This document shows, piece after piece, positions 2,220 to 61,260 of a stretch of 64,000 nucleotides of DNA (the first letter of the stretch is position 1; every line of letters begins with the position of its first letter). The translations under genes were made by a program, and so were the position numbers. The notes beneath the pieces were generated by a model. The model ran no database searches and was not told where the DNA came from. It saw only the letters and a list, made by a program, of their open reading frames with translations. Source of the stretch: Mesorhizobium sp. (lineage in GTDB: Bacteria; Pseudomonadota; Alphaproteobacteria; Rhizobiales; Rhizobiaceae); NCBI GenBank assembly GCA_004017535.1, contig SAJS01000024.1, positions 27,190 through 91,189 of the forward strand. The letters are read 5' to 3'.

Positions 2220-2981
2220 CGTCCATCGCTAAAGGCAGCGTATTGAATTATGGGAGCGGTCGCGCCCGCCCCACCATAGCGATACAGCAAGACAATCAAA
2301 AAAGCCGGTCTTTGCTTGGCCCCAAATCTTTTCTCCTTTCGTGAACGCTGAGCTGCCAAGCTGCTACAGTTCACCTCGCGGGGCAACCGTGCACAACACA
2401 GGAGTCGCCCGAGCGATACATTCTTCACTTGCCGCTTATCAGCGCTGGTGATTGCACTTTGCAGCCTGCCTCCGGACCCGCAGCGCTCACGCTGTTGGTT
2501 TTGCGCCTGCAGGCGTCGGAAGTCGGATCGCCGCAGCTAATTTCCTCAGGCGGACGAATTCAACAAATCGATTGTTTGGATCGAAGGCATCCGCACCATC
2601 GATGCCTCTAGAATAGGATCCAGCTACAATCACCGTGCTGTAATGGCAGGGACGGCCAGCACAAGCGCGACACGATCCGGCGGGTCCATCGCTGCGTTAC
2701 GTATTCATGGCTACTGCATCGGGCGCTCGGTCGACCGCCTTAAGCCAGGTCGCCGCATTGCGAGACGGTGACCGGCGAGGGAGAGGGCGCTCTGGCAACG
2801 AAGCGAGGCGGGTGGCCTTGCGGGTGGCCGCGTGATGTCATCCGGCTCTCCTGCCGATCTCTGCCGGCCAGATCTGGAGCAACTGTTTTGCATAGATATG
2901 GCTCTCTTCAGGGGGCCATCTATGATGGGAGCCGAGCGCGTGTTCGAGCGGGGGAACAGGCTGCACATGCGCTGTGCCCAC
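2220..2981. other. Gene-free stretch holding the nod box
   Basis: Apart from the nod box at 2556-2604 I see no supportable gene. The part from 2090 to 2555 would be a long 5' leader if the nod box drives the MucR-like gene. The part from 2605 to 2981 has only short overlapping frames with no recognisable motif. Confidence 0.4.
2556..2604 (-). promoter_or_regulatory. nod box (minus-strand orientation)
   Basis: Read on the minus strand from 2604 to 2556, the sequence matches the 49-base NodD-binding consensus. It has CATC, then GATG at the right distance, then ATC, AAACAATC, GATTT and AAT, each in register. Mismatches are one base in the first block (CATCGAT for CATCCAY) and a few in the TTACC segment. 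It points toward the MucR-like gene ending at 1617. No other convincing minus-strand gene lies between, so that gene is the likely target. Confidence 0.75.
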
Positions 2982-8061: not shown

Positions 8062-8082
8062 GTCAGCTAATCGTCAGCCAAG
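8062..8082 (+). promoter_or_regulatory. tts box upstream of the large putative effector
   Basis: GTCAGCTAATCGTCAGCCAA, followed by G, fits the tts core with the TCG centre and AGC half in register. It is on the plus strand and reads toward the 816-residue effector gene, whose ATG is about 460 bases further on. The gap holds no credible gene. Confidence 0.75.
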
Positions 8083-8541
8083 CGGTCTATCTAGGCCGGC
8101 CGTGCCTGACCTTCGGATCCAAAGGTCCCGTCTCGACACTTTTTGTAACTATAGATCGAAATGGTTTCCCGCGCGATACGCAACGCACACGCTTCTCTGA
8201 AGCAAATGTGTGACTTTGTCGGTGGCGAACGAGAGGAGTGACGCCTCAATAAAATCGTCAGGCACGTGTCTAGGAAGGGGAGCTAGCCGAGTTGGTCTGA
8301 TTTCATTCGCTGTTCCTGGAAATCGGCGGACTGAAGCGCTGATAATCTCAGGACATCGATGGCAACGTTGCGAAAGTCCTGTGAGCTCGGGCCAATCTTG
8401 GCCTGCTACTGAGAAGCACTTTGGCGGGAACATTACGCCGTCGCGGGTCTGGCTGACCGTGACGTTAACCGAAAGATGCCGCTGGTCTCGTCAGCCGCCA
8501 GCACAATAGCAGCACATTCTCGCCTACTACGGAGACGCAAT

Positions 8542-10992
8542 ATGAAGGGCATTGGCCGACCACGGAAATCGCAGGCTGAAACTGGAGCCAGCCGCGCGGG
8601 GCGGGCGAGCAGTTCCCTTTCGCAATCAAGTCTTGCTGCGGGAGAAGGTGGACAGTCATTCGATTCCGTTGTGGAGCAGATGCGCTCTGGGGACGCCGAT
8701 AGGAGGCCCTCCTCCCTTCCAGTTGCGCGCGGTCCAGGCGATGCCCGCGAAAGTCTGCCAGGCGCCTCGATTGGCGAAGATCAAATCCTGAACGCACCGC
8801 CACGTGGAGCCGCTGCGCCACCACGCGGAACCGTAGCGCCACGTGGCGCAGCCGCAAGGCGGCGCGGTTCTCCCTCCATGTCTGAGGGCGAAGCCATGGC
8901 GCCGGTCGGTAGCCAACTATCAACCGCGCAGGTGGAAGGCACCAGCTCATCGTCAAATGAAGATATCAGTCCGACACAGCTCAGAATGAACAGTCTTGTT
9001 CAACAACTGACTGATTGCGAGGCTGCGGCCAGGAAAACCGACGTCCCCGAGGAGGCGGTGGAGCTGATCAGTCGGGTCGTCGATGCAGCCTCAGCAATTC
9101 TGGAGTACCGCGCTAGCCTGCCTGCGGCTGAGGCGCAGACAATTATGCCAGACGACAAGGTGCGTAGATGTTGCCAGATCGTGTGCGACGCCGCGAATGA
9201 AGTAGACAAACTTGGCCTGTCGACGATCACGAAATTGGACAAAAAGACCAAGAAAGCGGCAGGTATGGTCGATAAACTCTACTCCTACTCCCAGGCGGAC
9301 CGGCAGGAGCTGTTGATTTTAAATGTGGAGAACCACCATACGGCGGCAATTAAGTGGTGGGAAAAAAAGGCATGGCGCTCCGAACGGCAGCGATCCGCCT
9401 GCGCTGCCACCGCTAGCCTATCCAGTGGAACGCCCGTGATGCGGGAAGCCGAGCGGTGCGCACTGCGGCTGCGTGCCGGCTCGGTACTGAGTGTCAGGAT
9501 CTGGCTGGTCCGTGAGCGGATCGGTCTTGCGCGGGCCAAGATTGAACTGCGGGCGAGCAGGTTCGAGCCAGATTTGAAGGAACTCCTCGTCGGTCGAAAT
9601 GGAGTGGTGCAGCTGATGGCAAGCGCCGGTCAAGAAGCTCTTCGCGCCCTCTCTTTGGCGAAGGGCATAATGGATGATGGCAAAGCACTCAACGCTCATG
9701 ATTGCGCGGTTGTAGAAAAAATCATGGAGCGGCTTTCGGATTTTGGATTGGCGTTGCACGAGGTGCATACCAAGCTAAGCCATACCTACCCAGATGCCGG
9801 CCTCCCATTGAAACTGTTCGAACGGATCGTGGACGATGCATGGATCACTGCGCACGATGCCATGCACTTGTTGAACCTGCAGTCTCCGCCGTCAGCCATC
9901 ATGGCGCCACAGGCCCAGGCGGGCGCTGCGATGCCGGCCAGGGCAGGCGCTGCGATACCGGCTGACACTGCTGGTACGGCTGCAGTGTCAGAAGGCACTA
10001 CAGCGCGAAGGAAAGGGAAGTCAAAGCATAAGTCGGCAGCTCGCGCCGGGACTTCTGCCGCCGGGCAGCCATCAACACCAGTCGCTGCGAACGCCGGCAC
10101 AGTGCCAGCAGCCAAGGTTCTCGCGCGCTCGGATCAAGTTGCGAGTACACAGGTGAGAGCGCAAGAGGTGGCTGCGAGTTCGTCGGGGGCAGGCTCGACA
10201 ATCGGGGGCGCCGCGTTGTCAATGGAGGTATTGACGGAGCGGCTCAAACGATTGGACGAACTTTTGCAGTTCGATCTGGCCGGTCAGCAAAGCGTCGTCT
10301 CCCAAGTGCGCCAGATGAAGCCTGAGGAGGCCGGTAAGGTCGTGGACGATGTGGCCCAGTACCTGCGAGCCCAGGCCATTGAGATGCAAACCTGTCTCGC
10401 CGGGTTGCAGGGGCGTAATGTACGCCTGCTACTCACCTCCACCCAGCTACCCAAAGTGCACGAACGCACAGACCAGCTCAAAGGGTTGCTGAACATGGTG
10501 CTGGGACAGGCCAACGCATTGAATGAAGGAAAAGCCGGCATTACGACTGATTGCATGAAGACCTACGCATTTCCGGCGCAAAAATACCTGGAACATTTGT
10601 GCAATGCCGACGAATTGATGCCGCCGGAGGCACCGATCGCGCTGCGTGGCGAGCCAGGAAAGCTGTTTGAGATGAAGCTGCAGCCCAAGATGCTGGTCAA
10701 TGGTGCGATGCCGAGCCCGATGTGGGTGCACATCCACACGAGTCGCCCCGTCATGGCCAGAAACTTGGAAGGGCTGGCTGATTCCGAATTCACCGCTTGC
10801 CACGTTAAATCCAACGAACAGCGCGGCTACAATCGAGAGCGAGAGGAAGCCGATGCTAGGTCCGGTCGCGAGAAGGTCATAATTCATCGCGGCAAACTCA
10901 CCCCCGCTTTCTGTAAGTCCTTGTTGACCTCGGGGCTTGGCCGCCAACCACGCCATTCGCGTGCCGAGCTCCCGTCGGCGCAGGCTGCATGA
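8542..10992 (+). CDS. Large putative T3SS effector, function unknown
   Basis: 816 residues, starting at the ATG at 8542, which has GGAG seven bases upstream. The N-terminus (MKGIGRPRKSQAETGASRAG, then Ser-rich) has the Ser/Ala/Gly-rich, disordered character of T3SS export signals. A Pro/Arg/Gly repeat segment lies at about 85-109 (PPRGAAAPPRG). A helical domain of about 300 residues follows, then an Ala/Pro/Lys linker at about 450-530, then a second helical domain from about 560 to the end. No membrane segment or catalytic motif is visible. A tts box upstream and the location between nopC and nopP support an effector. It faintly resembles large helical effectors of the XopP/RipH type, but I cannot establish this. 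Confidence 0.75.
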   Translation: MKGIGRPRKSQAETGASRAGRASSSLSQSSLAAGEGGQSFDSVVEQMRSGDADRRPSSLPVARGPGDARESLPGASIGEDQILNAPPRGAAAPPRGTVAPRGAAARRRGSPSMSEGEAMAPVGSQLSTAQVEGTSSSSNEDISPTQLRMNSLVQQLTDCEAAARKTDVPEEAVELISRVVDAASAILEYRASLPAAEAQTIMPDDKVRRCCQIVCDAANEVDKLGLSTITKLDKKTKKAAGMVDKLYSYSQADRQELLILNVENHHTAAIKWWEKKAWRSERQRSACAATASLSSGTPVMREAERCALRLRAGSVLSVRIWLVRERIGLARAKIELRASRFEPDLKELLVGRNGVVQLMASAGQEALRALSLAKGIMDDGKALNAHDCAVVEKIMERLSDFGLALHEVHTKLSHTYPDAGLPLKLFERIVDDAWITAHDAMHLLNLQSPPSAIMAPQAQAGAAMPARAGAAIPADTAGTAAVSEGTTARRKGKSKHKSAARAGTSAAGQPSTPVAANAGTVPAAKVLARSDQVASTQVRAQEVAASSSGAGSTIGGAALSMEVLTERLKRLDELLQFDLAGQQSVVSQVRQMKPEEAGKVVDDVAQYLRAQAIEMQTCLAGLQGRNVRLLLTSTQLPKVHERTDQLKGLLNMVLGQANALNEGKAGITTDCMKTYAFPAQKYLEHLCNADELMPPEAPIALRGEPGKLFEMKLQPKMLVNGAMPSPMWVHIHTSRPVMARNLEGLADSEFTACHVKSNEQRGYNREREEADARSGREKVIIHRGKLTPAFCKSLLTSGLGRQPRHSRAELPSAQAA

Positions 10993-22050: not shown

Positions 22051-22071
22051 GTCAGTTTCTCGAAAGCTAAT
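22051..22071 (+). promoter_or_regulatory. tts box upstream of nopX
   Basis: GTCAGTTTCTCGAAAGCTAA starts at 22051, a very good match to the TtsI-binding core. It is on the plus strand about 210 bases upstream of the nopX ATG, in the gap after rhcC1. Confidence 0.85.
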
Positions 22072-22281: not shown

Positions 22282-24219
22282 ATGTCGGCCAGCAATCTTT
22301 CAACTTTCTACCGCTCAAATTCGCTACAGTCCGCAAGGGGTTGGCCGGGCCTGAAAGTTTCCCATTTTGCGACCCAGCATCAGCAAAGTGCATCGTGCTT
22401 CGAAGCGATGCTGTCCACTTGTGTGCTGGCAAACAAGCCCGGCTCTTTCGCGCAAGGGGATCTGCCAACGTCGAATCTTGATTCGACAATGGATAAATTG
22501 CGGCAGGACCCTTTGGGCCATCTGGCACCGGATGTCGAATCGACATTGAAGGGCTTGGAGCAACACCCACTGGATCTGCTGCCGCCACATATGAGGGCGG
22601 CTCTCAAGGAGGACCAATCGCAACGCTCCAAGGCGACTGAAGCCCAACATCTGCTCCGCGTCACCCCGAAGATCGAGCCGGCTCCCAGGCCGAGCCCCGG
22701 AATCACGTGGAACGGTGGGTCGCTGACCACGGCTGAGTTGCAGATTGTTGCGGTACTCAACCGTCACAAGGACCAATGCCCGCTTAGTTGGAAGTCGTTG
22801 ACCGAGAAAGCCAATGATCCCTCTACGCCACCGGATCTGAAAGCGGCGATCAAGGGACTGCAGCAGGATTCGGGACTTTTTTATGCGATTGGCTCGCAGG
22901 GCGACGGCCGCTGTGGAGGCAAGATCAACGCCAAGGACTTGGCCGGATTTTCAAACCACCACCCACAAGTTGCTGCATTTCAGGAAGCCCAAGCGCAAAG
23001 CTACGAGCAGAACTACATACCATCCGACGGCAGCGGAGGTTTGCAGCCTTCGGTCATGACCTTGAGCGATGCCTTGCGGGAGTTTTACCGGTACTCCGAA
23101 AATCTGTCCAAGGACCTGAGTCTGGATGAGTTCAAGAAAATGGTCGGCGGCGAATCGAAAAACGGCAAATTTCCGCCCCAGGTCATTGCGGCGGCGCAAT
23201 ATTTCCTCGATCACCCCGATGCTTGGAACCAGTTGTGCGGTGGCTCGAAAGGGAAGATGCACAAAGAGGATTTCCTGCAAGTCGCCTCATCGTCGATGAG
23301 CCTCACGCAAACTGAGCTGAATACGGTCGAGATGATCAAGGACCATCAGGACACGTTCTTTGGAAGCGGTGTTCTGACTCGCGACAAACTGGCGAAAATG
23401 AAAGACGACAAGAGCCTTGATCCGAAAGTGCGGGAAGCAGCCTCTCAGCTCCTTTCAGATCCTCTTTTGTTTGGCCTCCTGAACAATTCGATCACGGGCT
23501 ATAAGACCCATCATAAATTCTTCGACTTTGGCGGCGGGCATACGGTTGATTCCGGCAATATCAGCAAAAAAGACTTTGCCCATTTTTGCACAAACATGTC
23601 GTCTGCGAACCGCAACGTTCAGCAGCCAATCACCCACGGCGCCCAAACCGCAGAAGAGCAGAATGCCGTCGCGGACATGAAGATGGGCCTGATGGACCAG
23701 CCTGACATTAAGTCAGCCAAAAAGAACGGCGGGGCCGTCATGCACGTCGTCGACTCCGTGCTCAAAATCGAGACGAAAGTGCTCGACTTGGCGGCAACGG
23801 CGGTGGGACTGCTCAGCTTCATTCCGGGCCTCGGACAAGTAGCCGATCTTGCCTCGATGGTTCTCGAGGCTGAGTCGCAAGCAGCCAATCTCCTGCGTAC
23901 GGCCATTAACGGAGGCGATATGAAGCGAGCGCTGGAGGAAGCTGGCCTCAATATGGCCGCGCAGGCGATCGGCCTTATCGCAGGCCCCGAGGTCAAGCTG
24001 GCCATTCGAAATGGGCTCGTAAAGCACCTGATGGAAGAGGCCTTGGCGGCAGGCATTGATCTTTCGGTCTCGACGGCGCAGGACTACGCAGAAGGCTATG
24101 TGAATAACCTCAAAGCGCGCCTTGCAGGCGGCCCTGAGCAAAACCTAGGCCTTCCGAGCATGCCATCATTCCAGAGTGTGGCAAGCAATGTGCCCTTCGT
24201 CGGCATTGCCTTATCCTAG
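22282..24219 (+). CDS. nopX: NopX, T3SS translocon protein (HrpF-like)
   Basis: 645 residues. NopX (older name nolX) is the secreted rhizobial counterpart of HrpF, thought to insert into the plant membrane as a translocation pore. The HrpF-type repeat structure is visible: SWKSLTEKANDPSTPPDLKAA, SLDEFKKMVGGESKNGKFPP and TRDKLAKMKDDKSLDPKVREA are related blocks, each followed by a GKI/GKM-type segment. A hydrophobic segment lies near residues 510-530 (VLDLAATAVGLLSFIPGLG). The ATG at 22282 has GAGG eight bases upstream. The export signal is the Ser-rich start (MSASNLSTFYRSNSLQS). Confidence 0.93.
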   Translation: MSASNLSTFYRSNSLQSARGWPGLKVSHFATQHQQSASCFEAMLSTCVLANKPGSFAQGDLPTSNLDSTMDKLRQDPLGHLAPDVESTLKGLEQHPLDLLPPHMRAALKEDQSQRSKATEAQHLLRVTPKIEPAPRPSPGITWNGGSLTTAELQIVAVLNRHKDQCPLSWKSLTEKANDPSTPPDLKAAIKGLQQDSGLFYAIGSQGDGRCGGKINAKDLAGFSNHHPQVAAFQEAQAQSYEQNYIPSDGSGGLQPSVMTLSDALREFYRYSENLSKDLSLDEFKKMVGGESKNGKFPPQVIAAAQYFLDHPDAWNQLCGGSKGKMHKEDFLQVASSSMSLTQTELNTVEMIKDHQDTFFGSGVLTRDKLAKMKDDKSLDPKVREAASQLLSDPLLFGLLNNSITGYKTHHKFFDFGGGHTVDSGNISKKDFAHFCTNMSSANRNVQQPITHGAQTAEEQNAVADMKMGLMDQPDIKSAKKNGGAVMHVVDSVLKIETKVLDLAATAVGLLSFIPGLGQVADLASMVLEAESQAANLLRTAINGGDMKRALEEAGLNMAAQAIGLIAGPEVKLAIRNGLVKHLMEEALAAGIDLSVSTAQDYAEGYVNNLKARLAGGPEQNLGLPSMPSFQSVASNVPFVGIALS

Positions 24220-24499
24220 CCGTCGCCTTGCGCGGAAGCTTTGGCTCGCGCGCTGACATAAGGGTCATTGTGGCACAAGCAGGGGTTCATCCGCATCAAC
24301 GCAAGCGGTGTTCCTGACGCCATCTGGATCGGACTGTGAGGGGGATGTCCGAAGTCTGTGAAGGCTTCGGTATATGACGACTTCAGAGTTACGCTGAGCC
24401 CAGCCATCTCGAGCCGGTGCGCCGGGTCGAGGTTTTCACGGGCGCCGGCCGGCAGCGGGGATGGTCTCCGGAAGGCACGGCGCGGATGGTGGCGGAGCG

Positions 24500-24612
24500 G
24501 CGCAGCCGAAGGAACGGCTGTCGCGCGCCCAGGGCGGCCTCCCGAACAGCCAGACGATGATCTCCTGCCTTGGGCCTATATCCTTGTGCCCACGCTCAAG
24601 GCAGTCGGCTGA
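24500..24612 (+). pseudogene. IS66-family transposase, extreme C-terminal relic
   Basis: Across one frameshift the plus strand reads LPNSQ then DDLLPWAYILVPTLKAVG and a stop. IS66 transposases (TnpC) end with a motif of the type HPNSQIDDLLPWAY, so this is the last piece of one. Nothing else of the element is clear. Confidence 0.55.
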
Positions 24613-25277
24613 AAACAGCGCTGATTTAAAACAGCATTATCCTGCACTGCACCCTCGATCCTTGCGCTCACCGATCGCTCGTCGACACGCACGCGGTCAA
24701 GTCGTTATCGGCGCTATGCCGATGGGCTTCGAGAGCAAGGTGGACGCTGAGCGGTGCGTCAGCCTCAGGGCGCGGCTGGCCAGCTTTGCGTCTCACGCTC
24801 TATGACGGCAACACCCGGCTGATCCACTTGGCCTGTTCGCGGGCTCCCGGCAGCGGCGCGGAAGCCACGGTCCGCCTTCCTCGGCTTCAGGCCAAAGACA
24901 CCGCAGCATGCTCCAGAGCTATGTCTGCCGCCTTCGCCCCATCGTCGCTGGTCATGTGGAAAGGACAAGTAGGCTACGCACCCCATAATCCCGTCGGGCA
25001 GGATTCGGCAGTCGACGGCGAGACATTCGCCAAACCTCATTCTTGATTCTCAGCAACGTTAAAAAAAATTCACATAATGTTCGTGAGCGTAGTCTCCTGT
25101 CAGGTGGTACATTCGCCACAATATCTGGCGTCTTAGTCGTAGAAAGGACTGTGATCCATCTTCCATTAGCATCCATACCAGCGGATTTACAGCAAATGAC
25201 GAGAGAGGTCTCATGCGGATTGATGGGGATAGAAGGGCTAGCGGCTTGCTGCATCCCGTCCGGGTTGATGCCAGCCA
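24613..25277. other. Gene-free stretch before the ArsR-type gene
   Basis: No supportable gene is seen. The last 230 bases are A/T-richer (a run of eight A at about 25061) and probably contain the promoter of the ArsR-glyA-metK set. No riboswitch fold or recognised operator could be identified by eye. Confidence 0.4.
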
Positions 25278-31743: not shown

Positions 31744-31792
31744 CATCCATACCGTGGATGCATTTGATCCAAATAATCGATTTGTTCAATCA
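31744..31792 (+). promoter_or_regulatory. nod box upstream of ttsI
   Basis: A 49-base match to the NodD-binding consensus: CATCCAT at 31744, CGTGGATG, then ATCCAAA, AATCGATTT and CAATC at the end, all in register. The clearest deviations are T for C in AAACAATC and TGTT for TTAC. It is about 320 bases upstream of ttsI and in the same orientation, as known for ttsI in other rhizobia. Confidence 0.88.
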
Positions 31793-31808
31793 GTTTCTCG
31801 AAAGCTAA
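31790..31808 (+). promoter_or_regulatory. tts-box motif overlapping the nod box of ttsI
   Basis: TCAGTTTCTCGAAAGCTAA is identical over 19 bases to the tts box of nopX. Its first bases overlap the last bases of the nod box. It suggests that TtsI can act at its own promoter, either activating or limiting it. Confidence 0.7.
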
Positions 31809-32110
31809 CCCTACCCTCTGTGGGAATCGGGCTCTGAGCCGCGACGCTGCCTTGCGAGCGTAGGGGCTGCACGTAGGAGAGATGATGCAACGAGAAATCG
31901 CACGCGGGTTGCTGGCGTCGTGGGTTCGCCGACCGGCGTATTTGAGCCCGCCAGTTGGTCCTCACCCGCGCCTATTGCCACCGAGCGACTTGCATGTCCC
32001 TCCGACTCGGACCAGTTCCGAGAGCTGCGACGAGTTGCGCGCCGTGTGCTCCGATCAGATGGCCGCCGGTGACGCGTTCGATGGGCCGTCCCTCTTCGAT
32101 AGGAGATGAA

Positions 32111-32797
32111 ATGCGAACGCTGCTCGTGGATCATCATGCGGATCTTGCGCGCGCCATGCGACTTGCGCTCGGGGATGGCGGCTTCGTCGTTGATGTCGTT
32201 GGTACTCTGGAACTGGCCTCGAGTGCATTTTCTTGCGCCAGCTATGAAATTCTCCTGCTGGAATTGGCTCTGCCAGATGGCGATGGCTTGGGTTGGCTGA
32301 GGCAGTTGAGGACCCACGGGCATTCAGTTCCTGCCGTCATTATGAGCAGCCTCAACGATCTCGATAAGCGAATTGCGATCTTCAACGGTGGTGCGGACGA
32401 CTTTCTGCTCAAACCCGTCTCTACCGATGAGCTTATCGCCAGAATGAGAGCCATTCTGCGCCGGGCGACACAAATGACCGACCTGAGGCTCGTATTTGGC
32501 AATCTCAACTTCGATCCGGTCGCCCGACAGGTTTTCGTTGCTGGGCACCCAATGATGATCGCACGTCGCGAACTCTGTATTCTAGAGCATCTGCTTAACC
32601 GGGCAGGCCGCATCGTGCCCCGTGCGCAGTTGGAAGATCACCTCTATTCGTTCAACGACGACGTGTCTGCCAACGCGCTTGAAGTCGGAATCTATCGTTT
32701 ACGTGGACATCTGACCAGATCAGGTGCAACGCCACGGATCAAGACCATCCGTGGCATTGGTTACATTCTAGAATTGACTGACGCGTCATCCGCATAG
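32111..32797 (+). CDS. ttsI: TtsI, activator of the T3SS regulon
   Basis: 228 residues, an OmpR-type response regulator with an N-terminal receiver domain (1-115) and a C-terminal winged helix (about 130-225, including EVGIYRLRGHL and IRGIGYIL). It binds tts boxes and is itself induced by NodD and flavonoids. The phosphorylation site, normally Asp, is Glu51 in LLLELALPDGDG, while Lys101 is kept; Glu can mimic the phosphorylated state, so the protein is probably active without a kinase. The ATG at 32111 has AGGAG five bases upstream (32101-32105). An upstream open frame to 31955 has no ribosome site. Confidence 0.95.
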   Translation: MRTLLVDHHADLARAMRLALGDGGFVVDVVGTLELASSAFSCASYEILLLELALPDGDGLGWLRQLRTHGHSVPAVIMSSLNDLDKRIAIFNGGADDFLLKPVSTDELIARMRAILRRATQMTDLRLVFGNLNFDPVARQVFVAGHPMMIARRELCILEHLLNRAGRIVPRAQLEDHLYSFNDDVSANALEVGIYRLRGHLTRSGATPRIKTIRGIGYILELTDASSA

Positions 32798-32823: not shown

Positions 32824-34290
32824 TTGCTGATCCTTCAACATCCTTGCCTTGCGCTCAATTGGCGGGCGATCGCCATCAAGGTTCCTAGACCTGCAGTGCC
32901 CCGTTACCTGGGCCATCTCCTCTGTGCGCTTATTGTGACTTTCCCACTTGGTGTCGCGGCGCAAAACAAGCAGGACAAAGGCGCGCCGCGTGCGGCTTCG
33001 AATAGCATCAACGCCACGCTGACCCTTTCCTCTTCGCTCGGGGAGACCGTTCATCTGCCCGCGCCAGCCACGACCATCTTTGTTGCTGACCCCACGATCG
33101 CGGATTTTCAGGCACCATCGAGCAAAACAATCTTCGTCTTTGGCAAGAAATCGGGGCGGACCAGCCTATTCGCCTTGGATGGCAACGGCGAGCCTCTCGC
33201 CGAATTGCGTATCGTTGTCACGCAACCGATCGGGGATTTACGCGCCATGTTGCGGGAGCAGGTCGGCGACTATCCCATCCGCGTCAACTATACGCCGCGC
33301 GGCGCAATCCTTAGCGGGACAGCGCCCGACGCAGAGGTCGCCGACACCGCAAAAAGAGTCACTGAGCAATATCTGGGCGACGGAGCGCAAGTCGTCAACA
33401 ACATCAAGGTCGCTGGATCCCTGCAAGTTAACCTCAGCGTGCGCGTAGCCGAAGTCTCACGCAGCGCCATGAAGTCACTCGGCGTCAACCTGTCCGCCTT
33501 CGGTCAAATCGGCAATTTCAAAGTGGGCGTTCTAAGCGGAAGCGGTGCAAGCGCTGGGTCTGGTTCAACCCAGGGTGGCGGTACAGCAGAAATCGGATTC
33601 GACAACGGTGCCGTCAACGTCAGCGCGGTTCTCGACGCGCTCGCCAAGGAGCATATAGCGTCCGTCCTGGCTGAGCCGAACCTCACCGCCATGTCGGGTG
33701 AAAAAGCCAGCTTTCTCGCTGGCGGCGAATTTCCCATTCCTGTCCTGCAGGAAAACAGGCAGGTATCGGTTGAATTCCGTCACTTCGGCGTCAGTCTGGA
33801 ATTTGTGCCGACAGTTCTCAGCAACAATCAAATCAACATTCACGTAACGCCCGAAGTCAGTGAACTGTCGACGCAAGGTGCCGTGCAAATCAACGGAATT
33901 TCCGTGCCGGCAGTTTCCACGCGCCGAGCCGATACGGTCGTCGAACTCGCCAGTGGGCAGAGCTTCGCAATCGGCGGTCTAATCAGGCGGAACGTCAACA
34001 ATGATGTCAGGGCCTTTCCCTGGCTCGGAGAAATGCCGATCCTGGGACCGCTTTTTCGCTCGTCCTCGTTTCAAAAAGAGGAGTCAGAACTGGTCATTCT
34101 AGTTACGCCTTACATTGTAAGACCAGGCTCCAACCCAAACCAGATGAGCGCACCTACCGAGCGGGCGGCACCGGCTTTGAACGGAGGGGGCGCTCCGACG
34201 AATTCCGTGGCAAGTCCCCCGCGAGACCGCGCTGCTATCCGTGCGGGCGCGCCAAGCGCCCAGGGCGGTCTCGGCTTCATCATCGAATAG
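32824..34290 (+). CDS. rhcC2: RhcC2, pore-forming half of the split T3SS secretin
   Basis: 488 residues. After a signal peptide (ending about GVAAQ) comes a beta-rich N-terminal domain (VHLPAPATTIFVADPTIADF), a BON-like segment and a complete secretin domain (GEKASFLAGGEFPIPV; VSTRRADTVVELASGQSFAIGGL; WLGEMPILGPLFRS; ELVILVTPYIV). The first domain and overall build are those of CpaC, the Tad-pilus secretin. Together with RhcC1 it should form the outer-membrane pore. No ATG occurs near the 5' end: TTG 32824 (weak AAGAAG upstream) or GTG 32896, which gives a neat signal peptide, are the candidates. Confidence 0.88.
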   Translation: MLILQHPCLALNWRAIAIKVPRPAVPRYLGHLLCALIVTFPLGVAAQNKQDKGAPRAASNSINATLTLSSSLGETVHLPAPATTIFVADPTIADFQAPSSKTIFVFGKKSGRTSLFALDGNGEPLAELRIVVTQPIGDLRAMLREQVGDYPIRVNYTPRGAILSGTAPDAEVADTAKRVTEQYLGDGAQVVNNIKVAGSLQVNLSVRVAEVSRSAMKSLGVNLSAFGQIGNFKVGVLSGSGASAGSGSTQGGGTAEIGFDNGAVNVSAVLDALAKEHIASVLAEPNLTAMSGEKASFLAGGEFPIPVLQENRQVSVEFRHFGVSLEFVPTVLSNNQINIHVTPEVSELSTQGAVQINGISVPAVSTRRADTVVELASGQSFAIGGLIRRNVNNDVRAFPWLGEMPILGPLFRSSSFQKEESELVILVTPYIVRPGSNPNQMSAPTERAAPALNGGGAPTNSVASPPRDRAAIRAGAPSAQGGLGFIIE

Positions 34291-60595: not shown

Positions 60596-61260
60596 GCCTC
60601 ATGTCTAAGACAACTGCCACCACTCTCGCGGTTCTCCTTTTTCTCCTCGCCGTGCTGCTTTCGGTGCTGGTGAGCCATAATAGCGCGCACCCACACCGGC
60701 GGGAAAGGCCGCCCCCGACCATGCAGTCGTGCCAATGGACAGTCAAAAGTGGAGCGGCGCACTCGTCAACGACCCCGCTTCGCCAAATCGCCGGCAACCC
60801 GGAACGTCCGGGGACCCTTCAGCGCTCTGCCGGGCGGACGGTCAGTCGCCCGGCGTGGTGAATGGCGGTCGCGGTTGCCCAGCCCGCGCGAACGACGCTC
60901 AGCTGGTGGGGTGGGCCCGATGGGGCAAGGCCATCTTTCCAGAAACCGCCAGAGCGCACCGGCATCGATAGCTGTGCGCCCTCGCGACTGCGCCCTGTGG
61001 CAAGTGCGGGGCTCGATCAAAAGCATTTTACACCAAAAGGCGGGCCGTTGCTGCCACGCCGTCCATGGATTGGAGACTCATGTCTAAGCCGACTGCCATC
61101 ACTGTCGCAGCTCTTCTTTTACTCCTCGCCGTGCTGGCGAGGCAATATAGCGCGAACCTGCACCGGCAGGCGTGGTCGATCGACTGGCAAAAGTGGAGCG
61201 GCGCATTCGACAACGACCCCCTTCGCCAATCGCCGGCAACCCGCAAGGCGGTGCCGTTCT
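60363..61260 (+). repeat. Decayed tandem duplication of about 450-480 bases
   Basis: Two successive copies, about 60363-60812 and 60813-61260, share the same order of landmarks. These include GTCGCCCGGCGTGGTGAA (60395 and 60847 regions), GCGCGAACGACGCTCAGCT (60422 and 60885), GGCGGGCCGTTGCTGCCA (60560 and 61040), the ATGTCTAAG start (60601 and 61081) and AAAGTGGAGCGGCGCA (60745 and 61190). Between them they have diverged by scattered substitutions and small gaps. Confidence 0.85.
60601..60812 (+). pseudogene. 5' fragment of a dsbA-like gene (first copy)
   Basis: ATGTCTAAG followed by a signal-peptide-like stretch (TTATTLAVLLFLLAVLL), then KSGA and a truncated remainder. It parallels the start of the second, longer copy at 61081 and stops where the duplication begins again. 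It can yield no thioredoxin fold. Confidence 0.7.

What the first reader, a model, noticed from the sequence alone, without database searches (positions are those of the whole stretch)
31744..31808. Composite nod box and tts box in front of ttsI
A near-perfect 49-base nod box (31744-31792) runs directly into a 19-base sequence (31790-31808) identical to the tts box of nopX. The two sites overlap by three bases. NodD control of ttsI is established in other rhizobia; a tts box at the same spot would add direct TtsI feedback. It could be positive, locking the system on, or negative, with TtsI displacing NodD.
Basis: partly seen in the sequence, partly recalled or inferred. Interest (0 to 1): 0.72.

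Follow-up and report, generated by a model that had tools for sequence, protein, structure and literature searches.

The report
NodD site fused to TtsI-type site
In a chickpea-type nodule bacterium, the DNA switch that turns on the master gene of its protein-injection system carries, overlapping the plant-signal site, a near-copy of the site recognised by that gene's own product, and part of this second site is conserved in related bacteria, which suggests that the master regulator feeds back on itself.

Summary
A nod box (31744-31792; 33 of 37 consensus positions) runs into TCAGTTTCTCGAAAGCTAA (31790-31808), identical to 19 bases of the nopX tts box. Caveats: the box's first base, G in 28 of 28 other tts boxes, is A here, and the 'TA' 9-10 bases past other boxes is CC; its score ties the lowest of those 28 (20.9). 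The element goes with ttsI: its right half follows 13 of 25 nonredundant ttsI nod boxes and 0 of 47 other nod boxes, and it contains the best-conserved 13-base stretch of the region, on a level with the nod box. Full or near-full boxes occur in three TtsI lineages; many others keep one half or an altered form, and some have none. It covers the place where other nod-box promoters keep their -10, so I favour TtsI damping NodD-driven transcription here; positive feedback and no effect stay open. Autorepression of ttsI in HH103 is published without a mechanism, but a plasmid listed there also carries the ttsI nod box. No binding was tested.

The parts
31744..31792 (+). nod box (NodD site) of ttsI
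   Evidence: 33 of 37 consensus positions; pattern match, 0 expected
31789..31806 (+). tts-box-like element ATCAGTTTCTCGAAAGCT (13 of 14 fixed positions; first G replaced by A); overlaps the nod box by 4 bases
   Evidence: PSSM score 20.9, equal to the lowest leave-one-out score of 28 other tts boxes
31794..31810 (+). conserved right half plus AACC
   Evidence: 31798-31810 is the best-conserved 13-base stretch of the 420 bases upstream of ttsI over 15 chosen promoters
31804..31809 (+). GCTAAC, at the offset (+14 to +19 after the nod box) where 47 other nod boxes keep their -10-like element
   Evidence: poor fit, score -0.8 against a control median of 5.3
31815..31816 (+). CC at the place of the tts-type TA (box positions +27/+28)
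   Evidence: sequence
32111..32797 (+). ttsI (OmpR-type response regulator, 228 aa, Glu51 at the phospho-acceptor place)
22051..22068 (+). tts box of nopX, the comparison copy
22282..24219 (+). nopX (NolX family)
   Evidence: PF05819, E 1e-204
32824..34290 (+). rhcC2-type secretin gene behind ttsI
   Evidence: PF00263
31882..32109 (+). leader ORF of 75 codons whose stop ends one base before the ttsI ATG (significance open)
   Evidence: no Pfam match

Best explanation
The ttsI promoter is a hybrid: a NodD site joined to a TtsI recognition element. Plant signal plus NodD start ttsI transcription; the TtsI that is made then binds next to and partly over the nod box. In this window the element covers the place where nod-box promoters have their -10, and the TA that TtsI-activated promoters have is missing, so bound TtsI most likely gets in the way of NodD-driven transcription and caps the TtsI level (negative feedback). 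Shown: the two sites, their overlap, the conservation of the right half, its absence after the other nod boxes examined, the missing TA. Inferred: that TtsI binds here (about 0.65 likely), and that the effect is repression (about 0.4 overall).
For: Right half of the box after 13 of 25 nonredundant ttsI nod boxes and 0 of 47 others (threshold set after seeing the scores, which leave a gap between 4.1 and 15.8). It contains the best-conserved 13-mer of the upstream region in 15 chosen promoters. Full or near-full boxes in three TtsI lineages on the best tree (chickpea island, M. tamadayense, M. amorphae/YC-39); in M. amorphae a perfect box sits at the orthologous place although the nod box now lies about 500 bases further up. 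In 11 of the 12 right-half promoters scored, the usual NodD -10 place scores -0.8 (the twelfth 1.3; control 10th percentile 2.8), while two of the promoters without the right half have a good -10 there (NGR234 6.2, L033 4.1). The tts-type TA is absent in the window. TtsI has Glu, not Asp, at the phosphorylation place in 66 of 66 ttsI loci, so its amount may be the main control. In S. fredii HH103 extra ttsI copies lowered ttsI::lacZ, and the authors do not know how (PMC10771577).
Against: No binding data. First G missing (28 of 28 have it) and score at the bottom of the range. The HH103 result may come from NodD1 titration: the ttsI plasmid listed there carries 'the ttsI gene and its nod box' (that it is the one used for the extra copies is my reading), and the S. 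fredii NGR234 promoter keeps only the left half of the box. TA-like pairs at the same offset also occur in some of the 47 control promoters (column counts), so the NodD -10 may work as it is. In 4 of the 13 right-half promoters (L027, L025, L171, L172) the tts-type TA is in place, which there speaks for activation. L179 (2.2) and L125 (-0.7), without an intact right half, also lack a good NodD -10.
Confidence: 0.4

Rival explanations
1. Positive feedback: TtsI bound to the box recruits RNA polymerase to its own promoter and keeps ttsI on after the NodD signal fades.
For: Near-copy of the box of TtsI-activated genes; 4 of 13 right-half promoters, and M. amorphae/YC-39 with a perfect box, have the tts-type TA at +27/+28.
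Against: TA missing in the window (CC at 31815-31816); first G missing; in HH103 extra ttsI copies lower ttsI::lacZ.
Confidence: 0.25
2. Relic or double-duty promoter DNA: the box is a leftover of an older TtsI-driven promoter; the right half is now kept only as spacer and -10 of the NodD promoter and TtsI does not matter here.
For: Left half altered in many relatives, in seven of 14 right-half-only rows by one missing base, a form not seen outside ttsI promoters in the loci held; GCTAAC at the NodD -10 offset.
Against: The other nod boxes show quite different sequence there, and GCTAAC fits their -10 poorly; conservation extends over CTTnTCGAAAG, upstream of any -10.
Confidence: 0.3
3. Chance resemblance created by the nod box end plus a few bases.
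For: The first 3-4 bases of the box belong to the nod box.
Against: 0 hits in 100 shuffles; conservation and specificity; perfect box at the orthologous place in M. amorphae.
Confidence: 0.05

Closest known systems
nod box before ttsI (NB18 of S. fredii NGR234/HH103; ttsI of M. loti/M. japonicum MAFF303099)
   Same: NodD site before ttsI and NodD-dependent ttsI expression (PMC4990936 and PMC8958295, passages); nod box about 290 bases before ttsI in NGR234
   Different: My searches of the held library (listings, and passages of ten papers) turned up no description of a tts element overlapping it; NGR234 keeps only the left half
tts boxes of rhizobial T3SS genes (nopX, nopB, nopC)
   Same: 13 of 14 fixed positions; 19 bases identical to the nopX box
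   Different: First G is A; no TA at +27/+28; lies over the end of a nod box; target is the regulator gene itself
HH103 autorepression of ttsI (PMC10771577)
   Same: Feedback of TtsI on ttsI, sign negative
   Different: Mechanism unknown there; the promoter of the related NGR234 has half a box; the listed ttsI plasmid also carries the nod box
PhoB-type (pho box) activation, autoregulated response regulators (recalled, no call)
   Same: OmpR-family direct-repeat site in place of -35
   Different: Here joined to a LysR-type (NodD) site, with the TA of the own class missing

Membership tests
nod box (NodD site) | 47-49-base consensus with ATC-N9-GATG and ATCNAAANAATCRATTT halves | tested here: met
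   (33 of 37)
nod box (NodD site) | -10-like element 14-19 bases after the box (empirical, from 47 nod boxes here) | tested here: inconclusive
   GCTAAC, score -0.8 against control median 5.3
tts box (TtsI site) | core GTCAGnTTnTCGnnAGCT | tested here: inconclusive
   13 of 14; the missing base is the first G, present in 28 of 28 boxes here (a set chosen with at most one mismatch) and capital in the published patterns read in passages (PMC6689892, PMC3009519)
tts box (TtsI site) | TA 9-10 bases after the core (nta end of the 30-base NGR234 consensus quoted in PMC3009519) | tested here: not met
   CC at 31815-31816
tts box (TtsI site) | bound by TtsI; expression TtsI-dependent | not testable with these tools
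   needs footprint and reporter
TtsI (ttsI gene) | OmpR-type receiver plus winged helix, upstream of the rhcC2 secretin gene in a T3SS cluster | tested here: met
   (receiver, Trans_reg_C, secretin, SctN ATPase, NolX); 79% identical to the NGR234 protein

The most novel reading that the evidence does not exclude
A TtsI recognition element fused to the NodD site is an ancestral part of the ttsI promoter in the Mesorhizobium-Sinorhizobium-Microvirga TtsI clade. Its state (full, left half, right half, or detached from the nod box; with or without the tts-type TA) sets whether TtsI damps, sustains or ignores its own expression, so that strains differ in how long secretion stays on after the plant signal.
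Probability: 0.3. Interest if true: 0.68.

Novelty: new variant of a known kind. Interest (0 to 1): 0.5.

Why it matters
NodD to TtsI is the link between plant signals and effector secretion in rhizobia and is usually drawn as a one-way cascade. A built-in TtsI site would make it a loop. It would offer a direct, testable mechanism for the unexplained autorepression reported in HH103, and a promoter feature by which strains may differ in how strongly or how long they secrete.

Tried and rejected
Trade-off between nod box and tts box quality: looked for because the two lineages with a perfect box have a damaged or displaced nod box, but over 25 promoters the correlation is positive (rho 0.44, p 0.03), so not claimed.

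A tts element at the syrM nod box, which might explain TtsI repression of syrM in HH103: the NGR234 nod box at 61012-61057, before the LysR-type gene that I take for syrM2 (identity recalled), shows none (score -19.6). Of the 7 NGR234 nod boxes that my pattern found, only the ttsI one has any tts likeness (6.0; the others -12.7 to -25.5).

Conserved small protein in the leader: several relatives have an ORF of 71-81 codons starting MRREI, MRREM or MMQREI and ending at or near the ttsI start, but the inside reads in different frames, and many relatives have none by my start pattern; left open.

The key papers on TtsI binding and the ttsI promoter (Wassem 2008; Krause 2002; Marie 2004; Zehner 2008; Okazaki 2010; Sanchez 2009) were not read: Wassem 2008 was looked up and is not held, the others were not looked up; any of them may already mention the site. 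That MAFF303099 is genome G019 rests on my memory of its chromosome length and is not used as evidence. Papers seen: PMC10771577, section 15 and part 1 of 2 of section 18, plus passages; PMC4990936, PMC4311626, PMC3973906, PMC4646503, PMC8627217, PMC8958295, PMC5793154, PMC6689892, PMC3009519 in passages only; all others in search listings only.

Rows left out: of 68 distinct ttsI upstream stretches, 47 had a nod box of at least 26 of 37; 21 were dropped: 16 Bradyrhizobium rows, one contig with 251 bases upstream (L026), L021/L157/L023 and L189 (no such nod box within 1.5 kb). The 47 were thinned to 25 at 85% identity. Controls: of 111 nod-box places in 28 genomes I fetched 70, fewer being distinct; with NGR234 and own-genome boxes this gave 67 distinct sequences after one ttsI nod box was set aside, thinned to 47 (one from NGR234, two from this genome's own loci).

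Full report
What is there. The window lies in genome G000, contig 16, and reads as a Mesorhizobium symbiosis island of the chickpea type: among the nearest named relatives are many Mesorhizobium records with 98-100% identical TtsI whose strain names carry 'Ca' (reading 'Ca' as Cicer arietinum is my inference). The ttsI gene starts at ATG 32111. A nod box occupies 31744-31792 and runs into TCAGTTTCTCGAAAGCTAA at 31790-31808. This 19-mer occurs twice in the window, here and before nopX (22052-22070), and in none of 100 shuffles even with 3 mismatches.

How good the tts box is. I built a tts model from 28 nonredundant sites lying outside the 1.5 kb before any ttsI, chosen with at most one mismatch to GTCAGnTTnTCGnnAGCT. 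It agrees with the published 30-base consensus, including a TA at positions +27/+28 (published form read in PMC3009519). The window site scores 20.9; the 28 sites scored without themselves range from 20.9 to 34.6, median 29.6. It lacks the first G and the TA. It is therefore a near-complete but imperfect tts box.

Is it special to ttsI? A nod-box search of 28 Mesorhizobium genomes found 111 places; I fetched 70 of them and added NGR234 and own-genome boxes. After one ttsI box was set aside there were 67 distinct sequences, thinned to 47. The right half of the tts box follows none of the 47 (best score 3.6), but follows 13 of 25 nonredundant ttsI nod boxes (scores 15.8 to 22.0; Fisher p 7e-8; the threshold was set after seeing the scores and the sequences are related, so the p value is a guide only). 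The other nod boxes show instead a -10-like GCAT-type element at +14 to +19.

Is it conserved? In 15 aligned promoters the stretch 31798-31810 is the best-conserved 13-mer of the 420 bases upstream of ttsI (0.95; nod-box stretches reach 0.94), and the 20 bases after it drop to 0.73. The 15 were chosen from the alignment and nearly all carry the element, so this measures constraint within that set, not across all ttsI genes.

Distribution. On the best tree of 42 TtsI proteins full or near-full boxes sit in three places (well-supported branches force at least two changes): the chickpea island, M. tamadayense (5 bases missing in the right half of the nod box, my reading), and M. amorphae/YC-39 (perfect box, nod box about 500 bases upstream; the leader behind the box aligns to that of four others above the best of 200 shuffles each). 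I put 14 of the 42 rows down as right half only; seven of these have the one-base-shorter left half GTC[AG]CTT, and two (L163, L169) still have CCAG there. S. fredii NGR234 keeps the left half only; S. alkalisoli, Microvirga and two Mesorhizobium keep altered forms; the M. plurifarium group, R. etli Mim1 and the Bradyrhizobium rows show none at that place. Different halves lost in different lines suggest an old full element, though gain in some lines is not excluded. In the genus sample 71 of 144 genomes have ttsI at E 1e-75 or better: 36 with 98-100% identity to the window's protein and 35 others.

How it may work. Tts-type promoters have their TA 9-10 bases after the box, so TtsI sits where -35 would be. 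Nod-box promoters have their -10-like element at +14 to +19 after the nod box. In ttsI promoters with the element these two plans collide: the right half lies on the NodD -10 place (GCTAAC), which fits the NodD -10 model poorly (-0.8 in 11 of 12 scored; control 10th percentile 2.8). Two promoters without the right half have a good one (NGR234 6.2, L033 4.1), but two altered ones do not (L179 2.2, L125 -0.7). The window lacks the tts-type TA (CC), so by geometry TtsI here should hinder rather than drive. In L027, L025, L171 and L172 (4 of the 13) and in M. amorphae/YC-39 the TA is present, so activation is possible there. These are inferences from sequence; I know of no mapped start site.

Link to published work. 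In HH103, extra ttsI copies reduced ttsI::lacZ, and the authors state that they do not know how TtsI represses ttsI (PMC10771577). The element offers a mechanism. Two cautions: the ttsI plasmid listed there carries the ttsI nod box too, so NodD1 titration could give the same result, and also the repression of syrM seen with extra ttsI copies; and the related NGR234 promoter has only the left half. Searches of the held library for an overlap, feedback or autoregulation at ttsI brought up no description of this element (listings, with passages of ten papers seen), but the main subscription papers are not held or were not looked up.

TtsI has Glu at the phospho-acceptor position in 66 of 66 ttsI loci with distinct upstream sequence. 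If this makes it independent of a kinase, as is commonly argued for such changes (recalled), control of its amount is what counts, and feedback at its promoter would matter more.

Verdict. The interpretation (TtsI feedback) is plausible but untested; the sign in this window is more likely negative, by geometry only.

Noticed in passing
window 2558-2603 (-): A second nod box in the window, upstream of a ROS/MUCR-family regulator gene (1617-2219, -); of the 4 places found in this genome it and the ttsI one matched without mismatch.
   Followed up: partly
window 31882-32109: Leader ORF of 75 codons ending one base before the ttsI ATG; several relatives have ORFs of like length and ends but with inner frame differences.
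   Followed up: partly
window 8476-10992 (+): An 838-aa ORF with partial similarity to a XopP effector model (far below the cut-off), about 400 bases behind a 12-of-14 tts-like site at 8062.
   Followed up: no
TtsI residue 51: Glu instead of Asp at the receiver phosphorylation place in 66 of 66 ttsI loci.
   Followed up: yes
L166, L167, L168, L170, about 970-1090 bases before ttsI: A separate, good tts box (score 27.7) several hundred bases above the nod box, of unknown target.
   Followed up: no
G000:C16:22525-23184 and 24401-24940: Two further response-regulator-like matches just outside the window, each with one in-frame stop.
   Followed up: no
L121 (M. amorphae), between nod box and tts box: About 500 bases without an evident long ORF separate the nod box from the perfect tts box.
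   Followed up: partly
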